Positions 354-5,222 of a stretch of DNA of 6,261 nucleotides are shown here, in pieces. Under the pieces are notes generated by a model, which saw nothing but the letters and a program-made list of their open reading frames with translations, did no database searches and had not been told where the DNA came from. Positions within the stretch are counted from its first letter, which is position 1. Every line of letters starts with the position of its first letter. The translations under genes and the position numbers were made by a program. The stretch is from positions 1 through 6,261 of the forward strand of contig CBDUXZ010000128.1 in the NCBI GenBank assembly GCA_965371325.1. The letters run 5' to 3'. This DNA is from CBDUXZ01 sp965371325 [NCBI: uncultured bacterium]. Lineage in GTDB: Bacteria > JAUYMQ01.

Positions 354-746
354 ATGGCGGGAAAGAAAACGGCGCCGGCAACCGGTCGATCGCTGGAGGC
401 CGAGGTCGCGGCCATCGGCCGCAAACTCGACTTGAAGGTGCAGAGTCAGGTCAAGGTGGGGCGGCGGCTCTGGGGAGCCGTGCGGAGGATCGATATCGTC
501 CTGACCCACCCCGATACGCGAAAGAGCCTCGGCATCGAGTGCAAGGCGCAGGCGACCAAGGGAACCGCCGAGGAGAAAATCCCCGCCACGATCGACGACA
601 TCGATGCATGGCCGATTCGCGGCCTCGTTGTTTTCGCCGGCGAAGGCTTCTCGACGAATATGGAGAATTACCTGTTCTCCACGGGAAAGGCCGTCGCCCT
701 CGAGGATCTGGAAACGTGGCTCAGGCTCTATTTCGGGCTGGCGTAG
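354..746 (+). CDS. Small PD-(D/E)XK superfamily nuclease-like protein
   Basis: A 130-residue soluble protein with no signal peptide or membrane segment. A PD-(D/E)XK core can be traced: an N-terminal helix with acidic residues (GRSLEAEVAAIGRKL, about 12-26), a strand with Asp47 (RRIDIVL), then the metal-binding E-x-K pair Glu62/Lys64 in GIECKAQ, a helical stretch (75-87), and a hydrophobic strand GLVVFAGEGF (90-99). In this superfamily Asp, Glu and Lys coordinate the metal and catalyse phosphodiester cleavage. The IECKAQ form with a Gln after the Lys is common among restriction-type and Mrr-like members. The ATG at 354 is set by a strong ribosome binding site. The gene converges on a Dam-type methyltransferase with only 8 nt between stop codons, so it may be the nuclease of a small restriction-modification pair. 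At 130 residues it has little room for a separate DNA-recognition domain. It could instead be a repair nuclease or a partner subunit. The fold call is fairly firm; the role is inference. Confidence 0.7.
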   Translation: MAGKKTAPATGRSLEAEVAAIGRKLDLKVQSQVKVGRRLWGAVRRIDIVLTHPDTRKSLGIECKAQATKGTAEEKIPATIDDIDAWPIRGLVVFAGEGFSTNMENYLFSTGKAVALEDLETWLRLYFGLA

Positions 747-754
747 CGGTGAGT

Positions 755-1585
755 TCAGGGGACCCGGGCGTGAGAGCGCACGAGGAGTTCCGAGATCGGC
801 CCGCGGCGATCCGGTCGGGAATTGATTCGCCGGTTCACCTGGACGGTATCGCGGAAAAACTTCCGGTACAGGCGCCGCGTGAGAGGCACATCGGAGTTTG
901 AAAGAAGCGCATAGACCCCGCGTTTTTTCAGCCGCCGCATCACCTTCGCGAGCCGTTCCTGCTCGGCGTCGTCGAAGGGGAGCCTGTCATAGGATGTGAA
1001 GCTGGCGGTGCTGGAAACGGGGGAGTAAGGCGGATCGAAATAAACGGCATCACCCGGATCCGCCTTCTCGACCAGCGTTTCGAAGTCATCCCCGCGGACG
1101 ATTCGCGCGGACTGGAGCGTGCGTGAGGCCGCACGCAGGTTATCGCGGTCGAGAATGCGGGGGTTCTTGTAGCTTCCGAAGGGCACGTTGAACTGTCCCG
1201 CGCGGTTGACGCGGTAGAGGCCGTTGTAGCAGGTGCGGTTGAGGTAAATGATGCGTGCCGACCGCTGGATGAGGGTGAGTTTCGCGGGATCCTGGGCACG
1301 AATACGATAGTAAGTCTTTTCATGGTGGCGCAGGCGCGCAAGCCGGGCGATCACCCCCTCGACGTCGTCGTGCAGACCGAGATAGGCGTCGATAAGATCG
1401 CGGTTTCGATCGCAGATCACCGCCCGCTTGAACGCACCCTCGGCCGCCAGCGCAAAGAAAACGGCGCCGCCGCCCAGGAACGGCTCGTAGTAGGTGTTGA
1501 TCGCGCCGGGCAGCCGCTTCAGGATTTCCGGAACAAGCTGGCGCTTCCCGCCCGCCCATTTCAGAAAGGGCAGTGCCTCTTTCAC
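755..1585 (-). CDS. Dam-family DNA adenine-N6 methyltransferase (D12 class), probably GATC-specific
   Basis: The protein transfers a methyl group from S-adenosylmethionine to adenine N6 in DNA. Motifs in order, numbered from the chosen GTG start: motif X FLKWAGGK near residue 7, the SAM-binding motif I EPFLGGGAVFF near 34, the Dam hallmark NRTCYNGLYRVN near 116-127 followed by FNVPFG, and the catalytic motif IV YFDPPY near 182-187. The downstream SFTSYDRLPF stretch is also typical. Residues matching E. coli Dam Lys9, Tyr119, Leu122, Arg124, Asn126 and Pro134, which contact or insert into GATC, are all present, so GATC is the likely target. I chose GTG 1583-1585 because it places motif X near the N-terminus, as in relatives, with a G-rich stretch just before it. 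The frame stays open to another GTG at 1619-1621, which would add 12 residues (MVVCRLFKRGGE) and has only a weak AGG upstream. The length of 276-288 residues is normal for Dam. It may be a restriction partner of the convergent nuclease or an orphan epigenetic methylase. Confidence 0.92.
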   Translation of the reverse strand: MKEALPFLKWAGGKRQLVPEILKRLPGAINTYYEPFLGGGAVFFALAAEGAFKRAVICDRNRDLIDAYLGLHDDVEGVIARLARLRHHEKTYYRIRAQDPAKLTLIQRSARIIYLNRTCYNGLYRVNRAGQFNVPFGSYKNPRILDRDNLRAASRTLQSARIVRGDDFETLVEKADPGDAVYFDPPYSPVSSTASFTSYDRLPFDDAEQERLAKVMRRLKKRGVYALLSNSDVPLTRRLYRKFFRDTVQVNRRINSRPDRRGPISELLVRSHARVP

Positions 1586-1649
1586 TTCCCCCCCACGTTT
1601 GAACAGACGGCAGACTACCACGCACCTGCGACAGCGCGAATTATTTTTC

Positions 1650-1721: not shown

Positions 1722-4007
1722 TCAGGGGAAGGCGCCGTTATTGGGGATGTTCGTATCGTCCGGCACCACGGCGCCGGGCGCAACCACCGCGTTCTTCCCG
1801 ATCGTGACCCGGGCGCCGATGTCCGCGCCGGCCCCGATGACAGCATCCTGTTTGACGAGCGTGTCGTTGCCGATGGACCCATCCACGCCGATGAACACAT
1901 TCCGCTGAATGTTCACGTTATTCCCGATGACGACGTTCTCGCCAATAGCGCCGGGCGCGATGGTTACGAACTTCCCCACCGTAACCCCGGTGCCGATGAA
2001 CGCACCGTCACCGATGACGGAGCCTTGCTTGATGATCGTGCCGGCGCCGACGGTCACGTTCGAACCGATTGTCACATCGTTCTGAACGGTCACGTCATCG
2101 CCGAGATTGACATTGTCGCCGATCGTCGCGTTGTTCTTGATGATGACGTTGTTGCCGAAGACCGCGTTATCGCCGATAGATAATACGCCGGATTTGATTG
2201 TGACCCCATTGCCGAAGACCGGATTGTCGCCGACAACCACGCCGGACGGGATCGTACCCGGCGGCACGCAGGCATCCCCGAAACCGTCCGTGTCCGTGTC
2301 TACCTGCCCGGGGTTCGGGATCGTCGGGCAGTTGTCCACATCGTCGGCCACCCCATCGCCGTCACTGTCTGCAACCGGGTCGAAGGAAGCGAGAAAGACC
2401 CCTTCGGAGCCGTCCGCGAAAATCGCGGCGAAGGCCACCTGCCCCAGATCGTTGAACGCGCTTCGTTGGCCGTCTTCATTTCCGGTGGTATCGCCGTCCA
2501 CACTGCCCAAGGCGGTCTGCGTACGCGTAAACGCAACCGAAAGGAGCGAAACCGTCCTGAAACTCACCAATCCCCCCGCCGTGACTCCAATCGTGTCACC
2601 CTCGCGCGCGATCAGGGTCAGCGTGCCCGAGGGGCTCTCGGCCCAGAGCCCCTCATCGTTTGAGGCATTGACGCTCGGGCCCCGCAGGCTACCGGTGAAG
2701 ATCACATGCCCCGCCCCGTTCATGGTGGCCGAACTGCGGACGCCGTCGAAGACCACCCCAGCGGGCGTCCCCGGCGCTGGGTCTCCCGCGCGGACGGCAA
2801 GCGCCAGGGCGCCGGGAGGGCCCGCCCAGATACCGGTATCGTTCACATCCAGGACGACGCCCGTCCCCGTAATCGCGGCCCAAAAGCTGACGTGGCCCGC
2901 ACCATTCAGAACCGGCGTGTCCACTTCCGTGAAGGTCGCCCCGAGGGGCGTATCCGGCGCCTGATCGCCCATTCGGGCGACGAGGCCGGGACTAGCCGGC
3001 GGCAGAGCTGCCCAGTTGCCCTGGTTATTCACGCCGTCGACGATGCCCGGGCCCGTGAGAAATCCGGCAAAGGCGATTTCCCCCGCGTTGTTGAACGCGG
3101 GGGAGCGGAAGCCAAAGCTGACGAAATTGACACCCGCGGGCGTCCCGGGGGCCTGGGTTCCGCTCCGGACGGCCAGTACCAGGCCGCCGGGCGGCCCCAC
3201 CCATATGCCGAAGTCGTTCTGGAACGCCACGATGCCCGGGCCCGTGAGCCGTCCCCGAAACCCCAAGGCGCCCGCACCGTTGATGGCGAGCTTTGACACC
3301 TCCTCGGAAAAATTCACGCCCGCCGGGGTGCCCGGAGCCGGGGAACCCTCCCGGGCAACGAGCGCCACGCTCCCCGGAACACCCGCCCACACACCGCTGT
3401 TGTTGGCTGCAGTGATACCGGTGCCCGTGAGGCGTGAGCGGAATGCCACGGCGCCCGCCGCGTTCAGCACCCGATCGGAAGGGTTAGAAAAAGTAGTGCC
3501 GACGGGGGTCCCTGGCGCCTGGGTGCCATTTCTCGCGACCAAGGCAAGGCTGCCGGGGTTTCCGGCCACGAGGCCACCAGGAAAGGACTGGAAAACTATC
3601 TCGCCGCTCGCGTTCAAACCCGGACTGGTGTGGAAGCTGCCGAATACAGAGCCTGGGGGTGGGCCCGGCGCGGGGCTCCCTTCCCGGGCGGCCATGACAA
3701 GGCTGCCCGGGCTCCCCGCCCAGAGGGCGAGGTCATTGGCACTGGTAACCCCCGCGCCCCCCAGGAAGCCCGTGAAACCCACCTGGCCACTGATGTTCAG
3801 ACCGGGTTGCGTCAAAGCGATAGCGTTTGTGGTCGGATGATGGAAGAAGGCGAGGTACGTGACGCCGGCGGGAGCGCCGGGGGCCTGTACCCCGGTGAGC
3901 GCGACGGTTTCGATGCTCACACCCAGGGCTTCCGCCGAATGAACGCCGCAAACCGTTGCCGTAAAACACAACATGCTGGTCAGGATAGAATTCCGAACGC
4001 GCGACAT
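1722..4007 (-). CDS. Exported NxxGxxxAF-repeat protein with TSP3 segment and C-terminal left-handed beta-helix
   Basis: A 761-residue secreted protein. Residues 1-27 form a Sec signal peptide (Arg3/Arg5, hydrophobic core, A-E-A cleavage site before Leu28). No lipobox is seen. Residues 38-540 hold eight repeats of about 60 residues, each pairing an R-x-G-(S/T/D)-x-APGTPAG segment with an N-x-x-G-x-x-x-F motif. These motifs start at Asn71, 132, 182, 243, 306, 368, 430 and 519, and the last spacing is longer. This is the NxxGxxxAF tandem-repeat type known from surface proteins with varied anchors, and it may form a beta-propeller. Residues 547-580 are a thrombospondin type 3 calcium-binding segment (DSDGDGVADDVDNC to GDAC). 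From about 588 to 752 there are roughly 26 hexapeptides such as VTIGSN and AVFGNN, giving about nine turns of left-handed beta-helix. That helix contains no His, Cys, Trp or Tyr, so an acyltransferase or carbonic anhydrase active site is unlikely. There is no C-terminal anchor or sorting tail. The start is backed by AGAGGTGA just upstream. A structural or adhesive role is inferred. Confidence 0.88.
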   Translation of the reverse strand: MSRVRNSILTSMLCFTATVCGVHSAEALGVSIETVALTGVQAPGAPAGVTYLAFFHHPTTNAIALTQPGLNISGQVGFTGFLGGAGVTSANDLALWAGSPGSLVMAAREGSPAPGPPPGSVFGSFHTSPGLNASGEIVFQSFPGGLVAGNPGSLALVARNGTQAPGTPVGTTFSNPSDRVLNAAGAVAFRSRLTGTGITAANNSGVWAGVPGSVALVAREGSPAPGTPAGVNFSEEVSKLAINGAGALGFRGRLTGPGIVAFQNDFGIWVGPPGGLVLAVRSGTQAPGTPAGVNFVSFGFRSPAFNNAGEIAFAGFLTGPGIVDGVNNQGNWAALPPASPGLVARMGDQAPDTPLGATFTEVDTPVLNGAGHVSFWAAITGTGVVLDVNDTGIWAGPPGALALAVRAGDPAPGTPAGVVFDGVRSSATMNGAGHVIFTGSLRGPSVNASNDEGLWAESPSGTLTLIAREGDTIGVTAGGLVSFRTVSLLSVAFTRTQTALGSVDGDTTGNEDGQRSAFNDLGQVAFAAIFADGSEGVFLASFDPVADSDGDGVADDVDNCPTIPNPGQVDTDTDGFGDACVPPGTIPSGVVVGDNPVFGNGVTIKSGVLSIGDNAVFGNNVIIKNNATIGDNVNLGDDVTVQNDVTIGSNVTVGAGTIIKQGSVIGDGAFIGTGVTVGKFVTIAPGAIGENVVIGNNVNIQRNVFIGVDGSIGNDTLVKQDAVIGAGADIGARVTIGKNAVVAPGAVVPDDTNIPNNGAFP

Positions 4008-4011
4008 CGTT

Positions 4012-4019
4012 CACCTCTC
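4012..4019 (-). promoter_or_regulatory. Ribosome binding site of the large exported protein
   Basis: On the minus strand, AGAGGTGA lies four bases before ATG 4007-4005. This good Shine-Dalgarno match supports the chosen start, which also opens directly onto the signal peptide. Confidence 0.65.
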
Positions 4020-4107
4020 TCGTTCAGCCTGGCTCCGCCCAATTCCTCCGATATTAGGCCAAGCGGCTTGCTGGTAAGGGGGTCAAACGGGGGCACCTTC
4101 ATCGCTG

Positions 4108-4123
4108 TGCAAGTTTCAGGCCA
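4108..4123 (-). promoter_or_regulatory. Candidate sigma-54 (RpoN) promoter for the large exported protein
   Basis: The minus strand reads TGGCCTGAAACTTGCA. The sigma-54 consensus is TGGCACG-N4-TTGCW. Here TGGC, the G at the seventh position and TTGCA all match, and the spacing between the -24 GG and -12 GC is exactly ten bases. Transcription would begin near 4098, giving a leader of about 90 nt before the ATG at 4007. The site is intergenic, points the right way, and belongs to an exported repeat protein. Sigma-54 with a PrsK/PrsR-type two-component system is known to drive PEP-CTERM surface proteins in some bacteria, so the biology fits, although this protein has no PEP-CTERM tail. No activator gene is in the window. 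Confidence 0.65.
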
Positions 4124-4144: not shown

Positions 4145-4213
4145 GTGTAAATATGAATGTTTTTTGGAGATCGAATCCGGGGGGAGGAAAAATTTTACAC
4201 TTAATGGGTAAAA
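4145..4213. promoter_or_regulatory. AT-rich inverted repeats upstream of the sigma-54 site
   Basis: An AT-rich island in GC-rich surroundings. GTGTAAA (4145-4151) and TTTACAC (4194-4200) are a perfect 7-bp inverted pair. TTTTAC (4193-4198) and GTAAAA (4208-4213) form a second, 6-bp inverted repeat with a 9-nt loop. Both lie about 20 to 90 bp upstream of the candidate -24 element and just after the stop of the neighbouring gene. They could be binding sites for an enhancer-binding activator. The inner pair could also form a weak hairpin at the end of the upstream transcript. The choice between these roles is open. Confidence 0.4.
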
Positions 4214-4220
4214 CTTTCGC

Positions 4221-5204
4221 TCAGTCGCCCTTCGGCGCCACCGACTCCGGCACGCCGAAGGGGCCCTTGAGCTCGCTTTCGGCCAGCCGCTCGACGAGTT
4301 CGTCGAAGAGGGGCTTTCGCTTTTCTGCGCGGTCGGGACGGTCGAAATAGGTCACCCGAAGGGTAGCCTCCGGATAGCGGATAACGGCGCCGGTCACAAC
4401 GAAGCGCTCATCGATGGTCTGCTGAAACGCGAGCACCGGGCGCCTGCCGGCGCGCGTCTCGACGCCACTCGTACGAATGCGCTCGGCCCCCCGCGCACGC
4501 GCAAGCGCGTCGAGCCCGCCCAGCACCGCGTCAAGCGTCGGCTCGAGCGAGCGCGGGAGAAGCTCGTAGTTGATGGAACCCGGCGGACCCTTCTCTTCAG
4601 GATCTGGTGCCACCACCTTCGCGGTCAGCGTGGCCCCCTTCGTCTGGCGGGGCGTCCAGTTCGCAGGTCCGACAATGCCCGGCGGCGCGCCGGGAATGGG
4701 GAAGAACGTCGCCGTCGACGCGATGCTGACACCCCGGGCGATCTTCTCGGCGATCGCGCGCGCGGGCGCGCTGTCGCTCCCGTTCATCAGGACCGACACG
4801 GGGATCATCCGGGTTCCTCTCCAGACGAAGAAAGTCGCCTGTGACAACGTGTCGTCGCCGAGCCTCGCCCCACCCCAGATTTCAACGACCGCATATCCGT
4901 CGAGTAACGCCTTTCTGCCCGATTGCTCCCCCACTTTCGCCCCCTCGGGAAAGACCGCCCGTGCGAGCGGCTTCAGCGCGTCGACTTCCCGGGAGAGAAG
5001 AAGCGTGAGGTTGAAGATCGCGGCGTCACGAAAGGGGGAGCCGGGAGGAGGTTTGAGTACAAAGGCGTCGGGCGCGCGCCCCGCCTTCGTCCATCCTTCG
5101 GGCGGTCGAATGTCGAGGCTGCCCGCCGCAGACGCGCCCATGAAAAACGCGCCCGATATCAGAACAAGGAGAAGCAGGCGGCGCACGGTCGCTTTGTCAG
5201 CCAT
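4221..5204 (-). CDS. Exported protein with two PsbP/DcrB-like domains, function unknown
   Basis: A 327-residue protein with a clear Sec signal peptide: Lys4, Arg8 and Arg9, a Leu-rich core, and an A-S-A cleavage site near residue 26. It has no lipobox, and the sequence contains no cysteine. After the signal, residues about 32-165 begin IRPPEGWTKAG and end in a helix. This resembles the PsbP/DcrB/Mog1 alpha-beta fold, in which a P-x-GW start is followed by a beta sheet. Residues about 180-315 appear to repeat the plan: NWTP start, LDALARARGA helix, FVVTGAVIRYP and TLRVTYFD strands, final amphipathic helix. I chose ATG 5204 because GAAGGTGG lies about eight bases upstream. A GTG at 5214-5216 would add four residues but has its Shine-Dalgarno bases too close. 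It is probably periplasmic. It is divergent from moaA and is followed by the sigma-54 gene, which likely has its own promoter. No enzymatic role is assigned. Confidence 0.75.
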   Translation of the reverse strand: MADKATVRRLLLLVLISGAFFMGASAAGSLDIRPPEGWTKAGRAPDAFVLKPPPGSPFRDAAIFNLTLLLSREVDALKPLARAVFPEGAKVGEQSGRKALLDGYAVVEIWGGARLGDDTLSQATFFVWRGTRMIPVSVLMNGSDSAPARAIAEKIARGVSIASTATFFPIPGAPPGIVGPANWTPRQTKGATLTAKVVAPDPEEKGPPGSINYELLPRSLEPTLDAVLGGLDALARARGAERIRTSGVETRAGRRPVLAFQQTIDERFVVTGAVIRYPEATLRVTYFDRPDRAEKRKPLFDELVERLAESELKGPFGVPESVAPKGD

Positions 5205-5222
5205 GAAAATTTCCACCTTCCT

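What the first reader, a model, noticed from the sequence alone, without database searches (positions are those of the whole stretch)
4108..4123. Near-consensus sigma-54 promoter in front of an exported repeat protein
The minus strand reads TGGCCTGAAACTTGCA, with exact GG-N10-GC spacing. It is intergenic, correctly oriented and about 100 bp upstream of a gene for a secreted NxxGxxxAF-repeat protein. Sigma-54 control of surface proteins is known for PEP-CTERM genes under PrsK/PrsR. Here a protein with a different C-terminal module may belong to a similar regulon, linking it to biofilm or matrix production.
Basis: partly seen in the sequence, partly recalled or inferred. Interest (0 to 1): 0.62.

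Follow-up and report, generated by a model that had tools for sequence, protein, structure and literature searches.

The report
Likely sigma-54 promoter, exported repeat protein
A stretch of DNA in front of a gene for an exported repeat protein looks like a real genetic switch of the well-known sigma-54 type, but the suggested tie to the PEP-CTERM control system is not supported.

Summary
The minus strand at 4123-4108 reads TGGCCTGAAACTTGCA, 11 of 12 positions of the sigma-54 consensus with exact GG-N10-GC. It lies in a 213-nt gap, 100 nt before the ATG (4007) of a 761-aa protein (NxxGxxAF/DUF7453 repeats, TSP3 repeat, hexapeptide beta-helix). Shuffles of the gap reach this score in 5 of 5000. 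The window's own genome is not held. In it 29 sites fit TGGCMYRN4TTGCW against 9 for the reversed pattern; 20 of 29 lie within 250 bp upstream of a gene, including pilins, pilM, amtB, lpxC, SpvB-domain proteins and activators. A sigma-54 promoter is therefore likely. PrsK/PrsR control is not supported: no PrsR over the cut-off among G062's five scored candidates, no TTTACA at the published distance, no PEP-CTERM tail. The repeat gene is missing at that spot in G062, so conservation could not be tested. DUF7453 genes in seven distant genomes show no such site (0 of 9 loci), and the excess of exported proteins among G062 targets is not significant. New member of a known kind.

The parts
4108..4123 (-). 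sigma-54 -24/-12 promoter-like element TGGCCTGAAACTTGCA
4008..4097 (-). predicted 5' leader, with a ribosome-binding-site-like GAGAGGTG before the ATG (read by eye)
   Evidence: inferred from the spacing of the element; no start mapped
1722..4007 (-). 761-aa protein: N-terminus like a signal peptide (by eye), NxxGxxAF/DUF7453 repeats, TSP type 3 repeat, C-terminal hexapeptide beta-helix
   Evidence: beta-helix also the only confident part of the structure model
4184..4222 (.). A+T-rich inverted repeat (arms 4184-4198 and 4208-4222, 80% complementary, 9 nt between): possible activator site, or terminator of the 331-aa gene
4145..4151 (.). GTGTAAA, reverse complement of TTTACAC at 4194-4200; contains TTTACA on the minus strand, 22 nt from the element
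4221..5216 (-). 331-aa gene upstream on the same strand, no family found; conserved next to moaA in G062

Best explanation
The element is a sigma-54-dependent promoter for the 761-aa exported repeat protein. RNA polymerase with RpoN would bind -24/-12 as a closed complex; an enhancer-binding protein bound upstream (perhaps at the A+T-rich inverted repeat centred near -106) would remodel it with ATP so that transcription starts near 4097. The gene would be silent unless a signal reaches that activator. In this lineage sigma-54 seems to serve a mixed set (pili, envelope, some exported proteins, ammonium transport, its own activators), and the repeat protein would be one more member, through an activator other than PrsR. 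Shown: the sequence, its place and rarity; RpoN and activators in a relative; placement of such sites upstream of genes there. Inferred: RpoN in the window's own genome, the activator, the start site and the signal.
For: 11 of 12 consensus positions, 5 of 5000 gap shuffles; right strand, 100 nt before the ATG, intergenic; no sigma-70-type site in the gap. Relative G062: rpoN 212.4 bits, many NtrC-type activators. In 106 contigs not chosen for their genes, 14 sites of >=11 of 12, 7 of them well placed; six wrong-spacing controls gave 25 sites, 4 well placed in all. In all 111 contigs 11 of 18, against a mean of 0.57 and a largest of 3 in 60 permuted patterns. Whole genome: 29 matches against 9 for the reversed pattern, 20 of 29 well placed. 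Runs of A are commoner upstream of G062 sites (AAAAA in 11 of 23 against 52 of 539 regions), and the window has such runs at 4160-4165 and 4188-4192. Francke et al. report that well-placed sites in genomes with sigma-54 are highly likely to be genuine (PMC3162934, section 7 read).
Against: The window's own genome is not held, so its rpoN is inferred. The mismatch is at -22, where 19 of the 20 well-placed G062 sites keep A (pattern allowed A or C only). Conservation could not be tested: G062 lacks the gene at this place. DUF7453 genes of seven distant genomes have no site of >=11 of 12 upstream (0 of 9 loci), six of those seven genomes having rpoN over the cut-off. No activator site is established.
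Confidence: 0.75

Rival explanations
1. Chance match: the gene is transcribed from another kind of promoter or by read-through from the 331-aa gene 213 nt upstream on the same strand, and the element does nothing.
For: The -22 position departs from the consensus; a reader who looks for many motifs will find some. DUF7453 genes elsewhere have no such site (0 of 9 loci). In G062, 9 of 29 pattern matches are not well placed.
Against: 5 of 5000 gap shuffles; for one-mismatch sites in G062, 6 well placed where controls give about 0.6; no sigma-70-type site in the gap.
Confidence: 0.2
2. PrsK/PrsR-controlled PEP-CTERM box: motif 1 bound by PrsR plus the sigma-54 site.
For: TTTACA occurs upstream on the right strand (22 nt), and an inverted repeat with TTTTAC/GTAAAA arms lies 60 nt upstream, near the published mean of 62.8 nt. 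G062 has an exosortase, 225.8 bits. Site to ATG, 100 nt, fits the published 71 +/- 38.5.
Against: TTTACA is nearer than the published minimum of 32 nt; the repeat at 60 nt does not end in TTTACA; no PrsR over the cut-off among the 5 of 58 candidates scored in G062, and none of three activators passes it in a full scan; PrsR carriers and DUF7453 carriers do not overlap; no PEP-CTERM tail.
Confidence: 0.05
3. The inverted repeat at 4184-4222 is the transcription terminator of the 331-aa gene and has nothing to do with activation. (This concerns the role of the repeat only and can be true together with the best explanation.)
For: It begins at the stop codon; as RNA on that gene's strand it folds at -10.6 kcal/mol, z -5.05, and less well relative to shuffles on the other strand, z -2.00.
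Against: The stem is A+T-rich, the T run lies inside the stem, and the terminator scan did not report it.
Confidence: 0.5

Closest known systems
sigma-54 (RpoN) -24/-12 promoters (Francke et al. 2011, PMC3162934; ProPr54, PMC11704786)
   Same: Consensus at 11 of 12 positions, exact GG-N10-GC, intergenic, right strand, 100 nt from the start codon
   Different: C instead of A at -22; activator, start site and RpoN dependence unknown
PEP-CTERM box with PrsK/PrsR (Haft et al. 2006, PMC1569441; Xia et al. 2023, PMC9850573)
   Same: sigma-54 site before a gene for an exported protein; similar distance to the start codon; an A+T-rich repeat about 60 nt upstream
   Different: No TTTACA-ending motif at 32-92 nt, no PEP-CTERM tail, no PrsR over the cut-off found in the relative
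Choice-of-anchor NxxGxxAF-repeat proteins (TIGR05002, DUF7453)
   Same: Eight repeat stretches, 299.9 bits against a cut-off of 50; exported by its N-terminus
   Different: Ends in a TSP3 repeat plus hexapeptide beta-helix, no known sorting tail seen; how common this is was not tested

Membership tests
sigma-54 promoter | GG-N10-GC within TGGCAYRN4TTGCW | tested here: met
   11 of 12, GG and GC exact
sigma-54 promoter | Upstream of a gene, same strand, within about 200-300 nt | tested here: met
   100 nt before the ATG at 4007
sigma-54 promoter | rpoN and sigma-54 activators in the genome | tested here: inconclusive
   Met in relative G062; the window's own genome is not held
sigma-54 promoter | Transcript start about 12 nt downstream of GC, dependent on RpoN and an activator | not testable with these tools
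   needs an experiment
sigma-54 promoter | Conservation of the site in orthologous upstream regions | not testable with these tools
   Gene missing at this place in G062; phylum of G062 holds one genome
PEP-CTERM box (PrsR regulon) | 17-nt motif ending in TTTACA, 32-92 nt upstream of the sigma-54 motif | tested here: not met
   Minus-strand TTTACA only at 4151-4146, 22 nt upstream; the full motif was only seen in words, not as a logo
PEP-CTERM box (PrsR regulon) | PrsR (TIGR02915) in the genome | tested here: inconclusive
   Own genome not held; in G062 best 437.8 bits against 502.6, 5 of 58 candidates scored
PEP-CTERM box (PrsR regulon) | PEP-CTERM tail on the protein | tested here: not met
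   C-terminus ...PDDTNIPNNGAFP, no PEP motif, membrane segment or basic end by eye; no such family in the 25 of 46 shown
NxxGxxAF repeat family (TIGR05002/DUF7453) | Score over the curated cut-off | tested here: met
   TIGR05002 299.9 bits (cut-off 50); PF24251 360.5 bits (cut-off 26.2)

The most novel reading that the evidence does not exclude
In a sparsely sampled bacterial lineage, sigma-54 governs a surface and pilus regulon through activators other than PrsR, and the NxxGxxAF-beta-helix gene entered the moaA-dam locus as a cassette that carries its own sigma-54 promoter, so that a structural surface protein comes under activator control by gene transfer.
Probability: 0.2. Interest if true: 0.5.

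Novelty: new member of a known kind. Interest (0 to 1): 0.3.

Why it matters
If true, it gives a regulatory lead for the NxxGxxAF (DUF7453) family, for which the library held no paper under the name DUF7453, and adds a poorly sampled lineage to the known tie between sigma-54 and the cell exterior, here apparently without PrsR. Otherwise it is an ordinary promoter.

Tried and rejected
Own-genome scan for rpoN, prsK and prsR: not possible, no genome held. The one genome-contig scan found only an acetyltransferase-like gene that matches the beta-helix (L001), and neither its genome nor the other 5 held of its phylum has DUF7453. Plasmids gave six records, beta-helix part only, and phages none. 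Two viral-contig scans with proteins found no relative, and a 19-base promoter pattern had no match there.

A conserved site across the DUF7453 family: looked for in nine loci of seven distant genomes, from 300 nt before to 120 nt after the opening of the frame; none of >=11 of 12. Two loci have a site of 9 upstream, one has a site of 10 inside the frame.

The near-identity of the window site with one before an exported peroxidase in G062 (TGGCCTGAAAATTGCA, 15 of 16) was not counted as evidence: by my own arithmetic, from no call, about 0.2 such coincidences are expected among 29 sites.

A shared activator site in G062: k-mer counts upstream of 23 sites showed mainly runs of A. An excess of exported proteins among G062 targets: 8 of 20 against 138 of 533, p = 0.13 at the threshold 1.8, and 0.08-0.27 at the others; not significant. 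Two target starts (L175, L198) are probably called too far inside, which lowers the count. The C-terminal module in other G062 proteins: 8 weak matches, at most 30.5 bits. Structure prediction from the single sequence was poor outside the beta-helix (mean pLDDT 39.3), so no fold search was made.

Limits: the gene caller is home-made. Five of 111 G062 contigs (L055, L065-L068) were chosen for their genes; they are left out of the unbiased count but are. G062 is in many contigs and its completeness is not told. One target (L200) was added by eye.

Full report
What is there. The minus strand at 4123-4108 reads TGGCCTGAAACTTGCA, which fits TGGCAYRN4TTGCW at 11 of 12 positions; the exception is C for A at -22. 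It is the only site of 10 or more in the window and the only exact hit to TGGCN7TTGCW. The consensus agrees with the one printed in the ProPr54 paper (PMC11704786, passages seen). It lies between a 331-aa gene (5216-4221) and a 761-aa gene (4007-1722), both on the minus strand. Dinucleotide shuffles of the 213-nt gap reach this score in 5 of 5000. By count the transcript would start at about 4097, with a leader of about 90 nt. The simple scan shows no sigma-70-type site in the gap.

The protein. It has TIGR05002 repeats (299.9 bits, 8 stretches; 'choice-of-anchor tandem repeat NxxGxxAF-containing protein'), over the same stretch as DUF7453, then a TSP type 3 repeat and a C-terminal hexapeptide beta-helix. 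The N-terminus looks like a signal peptide by eye. No paper in the library holds 'DUF7453'. One holds 'choice-of-anchor' with 'repeat' and 'exported'; only its listing was seen, and it concerns a type IX secretion system.

Finding a relative. No genome is held for the window. Its phylum holds only that genome. It has the 331-aa gene next to moaA (56% identity), followed directly by the dam-type methylase gene. The repeat gene is missing there: the flanks align (69.7% and 82.1% identity over 132 and 84 columns), with about 2.5 kb more between them in the window. 7 of 290 spread genomes have DUF7453, and G062 is not one of them; I infer from its handle number that it was in that set, since the non-matching genomes are not all listed. 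So the gene with its promoter is an insertion or a loss relative to G062, and conservation of the site could not be tested.

Is sigma-54 at work in this lineage? G062 has rpoN (212.4 bits) and 58 first-look candidates for NtrC-type activators. In 106 contigs not chosen for their genes (660 kb), 14 sites of >=11 of 12 were found, 7 of them intergenic and within 250 bp upstream of a start on the same strand; six wrong-spacing controls (-3 to +3) gave 25 sites in all, 4 so placed. With all 111 contigs the numbers are 11 of 18, against a mean of 0.57 (largest 3) in 60 permuted patterns; 4.7% of strand positions are in that class. Over the whole genome TGGCMYRN4TTGCW matches 29 times, the reversed pattern 9 times. 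Of the 29, 20 are well placed (19 by the gene caller; L200 by eye), 4 are intergenic but further away, 3 lie inside genes and 2 have no called start. Targets by Pfam: four SpvB-domain proteins, two with type IV pilin methylation motifs, PilM, AmtB, LpxC, a sigma-70-family factor, an animal-haem-peroxidase-like protein, a DUF5666 protein, a radical SAM protein, a CBS protein and an activator (L203); two more are activators (L194 and L199, the genes scanned as L065 and L067). The sampled contigs add an Flp pilin, a subtilase and a multicopper oxidase with one-mismatch sites. This agrees with the theme that sigma-54 controls the bacterial exterior (PMC3162934; outline with abstract and section 7 read). 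But a crude count of exported targets is not significantly raised (8 of 20 against 138 of 533, p = 0.13).

How sure. Of 11 sites with exactly one mismatch in the G062 sample, 6 are well placed, where controls give about 0.6 for all sites of >=11. So a well-placed one-mismatch site has a good chance of being real. The window's mismatch is at -22, where 19 of 20 well-placed G062 sites have A (the pattern allowed A or C); this lowers the estimate. DUF7453 genes in other phyla lack such a site (0 of 9 loci), so the control is not a family trait. I put the promoter at 0.75.

The PrsR idea. Haft et al. 2006 (PMC1569441; section 7 and passages read) describe a 17-nt motif 1 ending in TTTACA, on average 62.8 nt (SD 10.6, range 32-92) upstream of a sigma-54 motif, before 99 of 167 proteobacterial PEP-CTERM genes. 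Xia et al. 2023 (PMC9850573; [quoted passage not shown] The window has a minus-strand TTTACA only 22 nt from the site. An inverted repeat with TTTTAC/GTAAAA arms (4184-4222) is 60 nt away but does not end in TTTACA. In G062 the best PrsR match is 437.8 bits against a cut-off of 502.6, with 5 of 58 candidates scored; three activators scanned in full pass neither the PrsR cut-off nor any other cut-off among the 25 models shown for each. 14 of 290 spread genomes have PrsR over the cut-off; none is among the 7 with DUF7453 (the two sets of 290 differ slightly). In 398 genomes of the phylum of the best PrsR carrier, 3 have weak TIGR05002 matches and none is rated over the cut-off, though one 853-aa frame in G688 has three stretches (41.4, 25.6 and 22.9 bits). 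Against my reading: G062 has an exosortase (225.8 bits), so PEP-CTERM-like sorting may exist in the lineage. PrsK and the PEP-CTERM tail were not searched for in G062.

The inverted repeat. It is somewhat unusual: 8 of 400 shuffles are as good with 15-nt arms and 18 of 400 with 10-nt arms. Its centre, about -106, is where activator sites often sit (general knowledge). It also folds well as RNA just after the upstream gene's stop (z -5.05). I leave its role open, about even. Runs of A are enriched upstream of G062's sites (AAAAA in 11 of 23 against 52 of 539), and the window shares that feature.

Conclusion. A likely, ordinary sigma-54 promoter for an exported protein of a family of unknown function, in a poorly sampled lineage. 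The PrsK/PrsR part of the reading should be dropped unless the source genome shows otherwise.

Noticed in passing
window about 296-342: A dispersed repeat (TGCTTCGTCG...CTCCTCGCAATGACA). Its 15-base core CTCCTCGCAATGACA occurs 26 times on 16 of the 111 sampled G062 contigs.
   Followed up: partly
window 354-1621: A PD-(D/E)XK nuclease-like protein (354-746, +) faces a Dam-family adenine methylase (1621-755, -), possibly a restriction-modification-like pair. Gene calls of the same size and order lie beside the methylase gene in G062 (L055); the nuclease homology there was not tested.
   Followed up: partly
window 1722-4007 against L055: The repeat gene and its promoter lie between two genes that are neighbours in G062: a clean insertion or loss of about 2.5 kb.
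   Followed up: partly
L175, L184, L187, L198: Four SpvB-domain proteins in G062 each have a sigma-54-like site 78-246 nt upstream of the called start.
   Followed up: no
L181 (1225-1431, -) and L193 (730-909, +): Two short open frames with alike ends (...ELYDLVD......TLYGLVD...) follow sigma-54-like sites at 69 and 48 nt in G062: perhaps an undescribed small-protein family.
   Followed up: no
window 1725-2375, -: The exported repeat protein ends in a TSP3 repeat plus a hexapeptide beta-helix, a fold usual in acyltransferases; it may serve as stalk or anchor.
   Followed up: no
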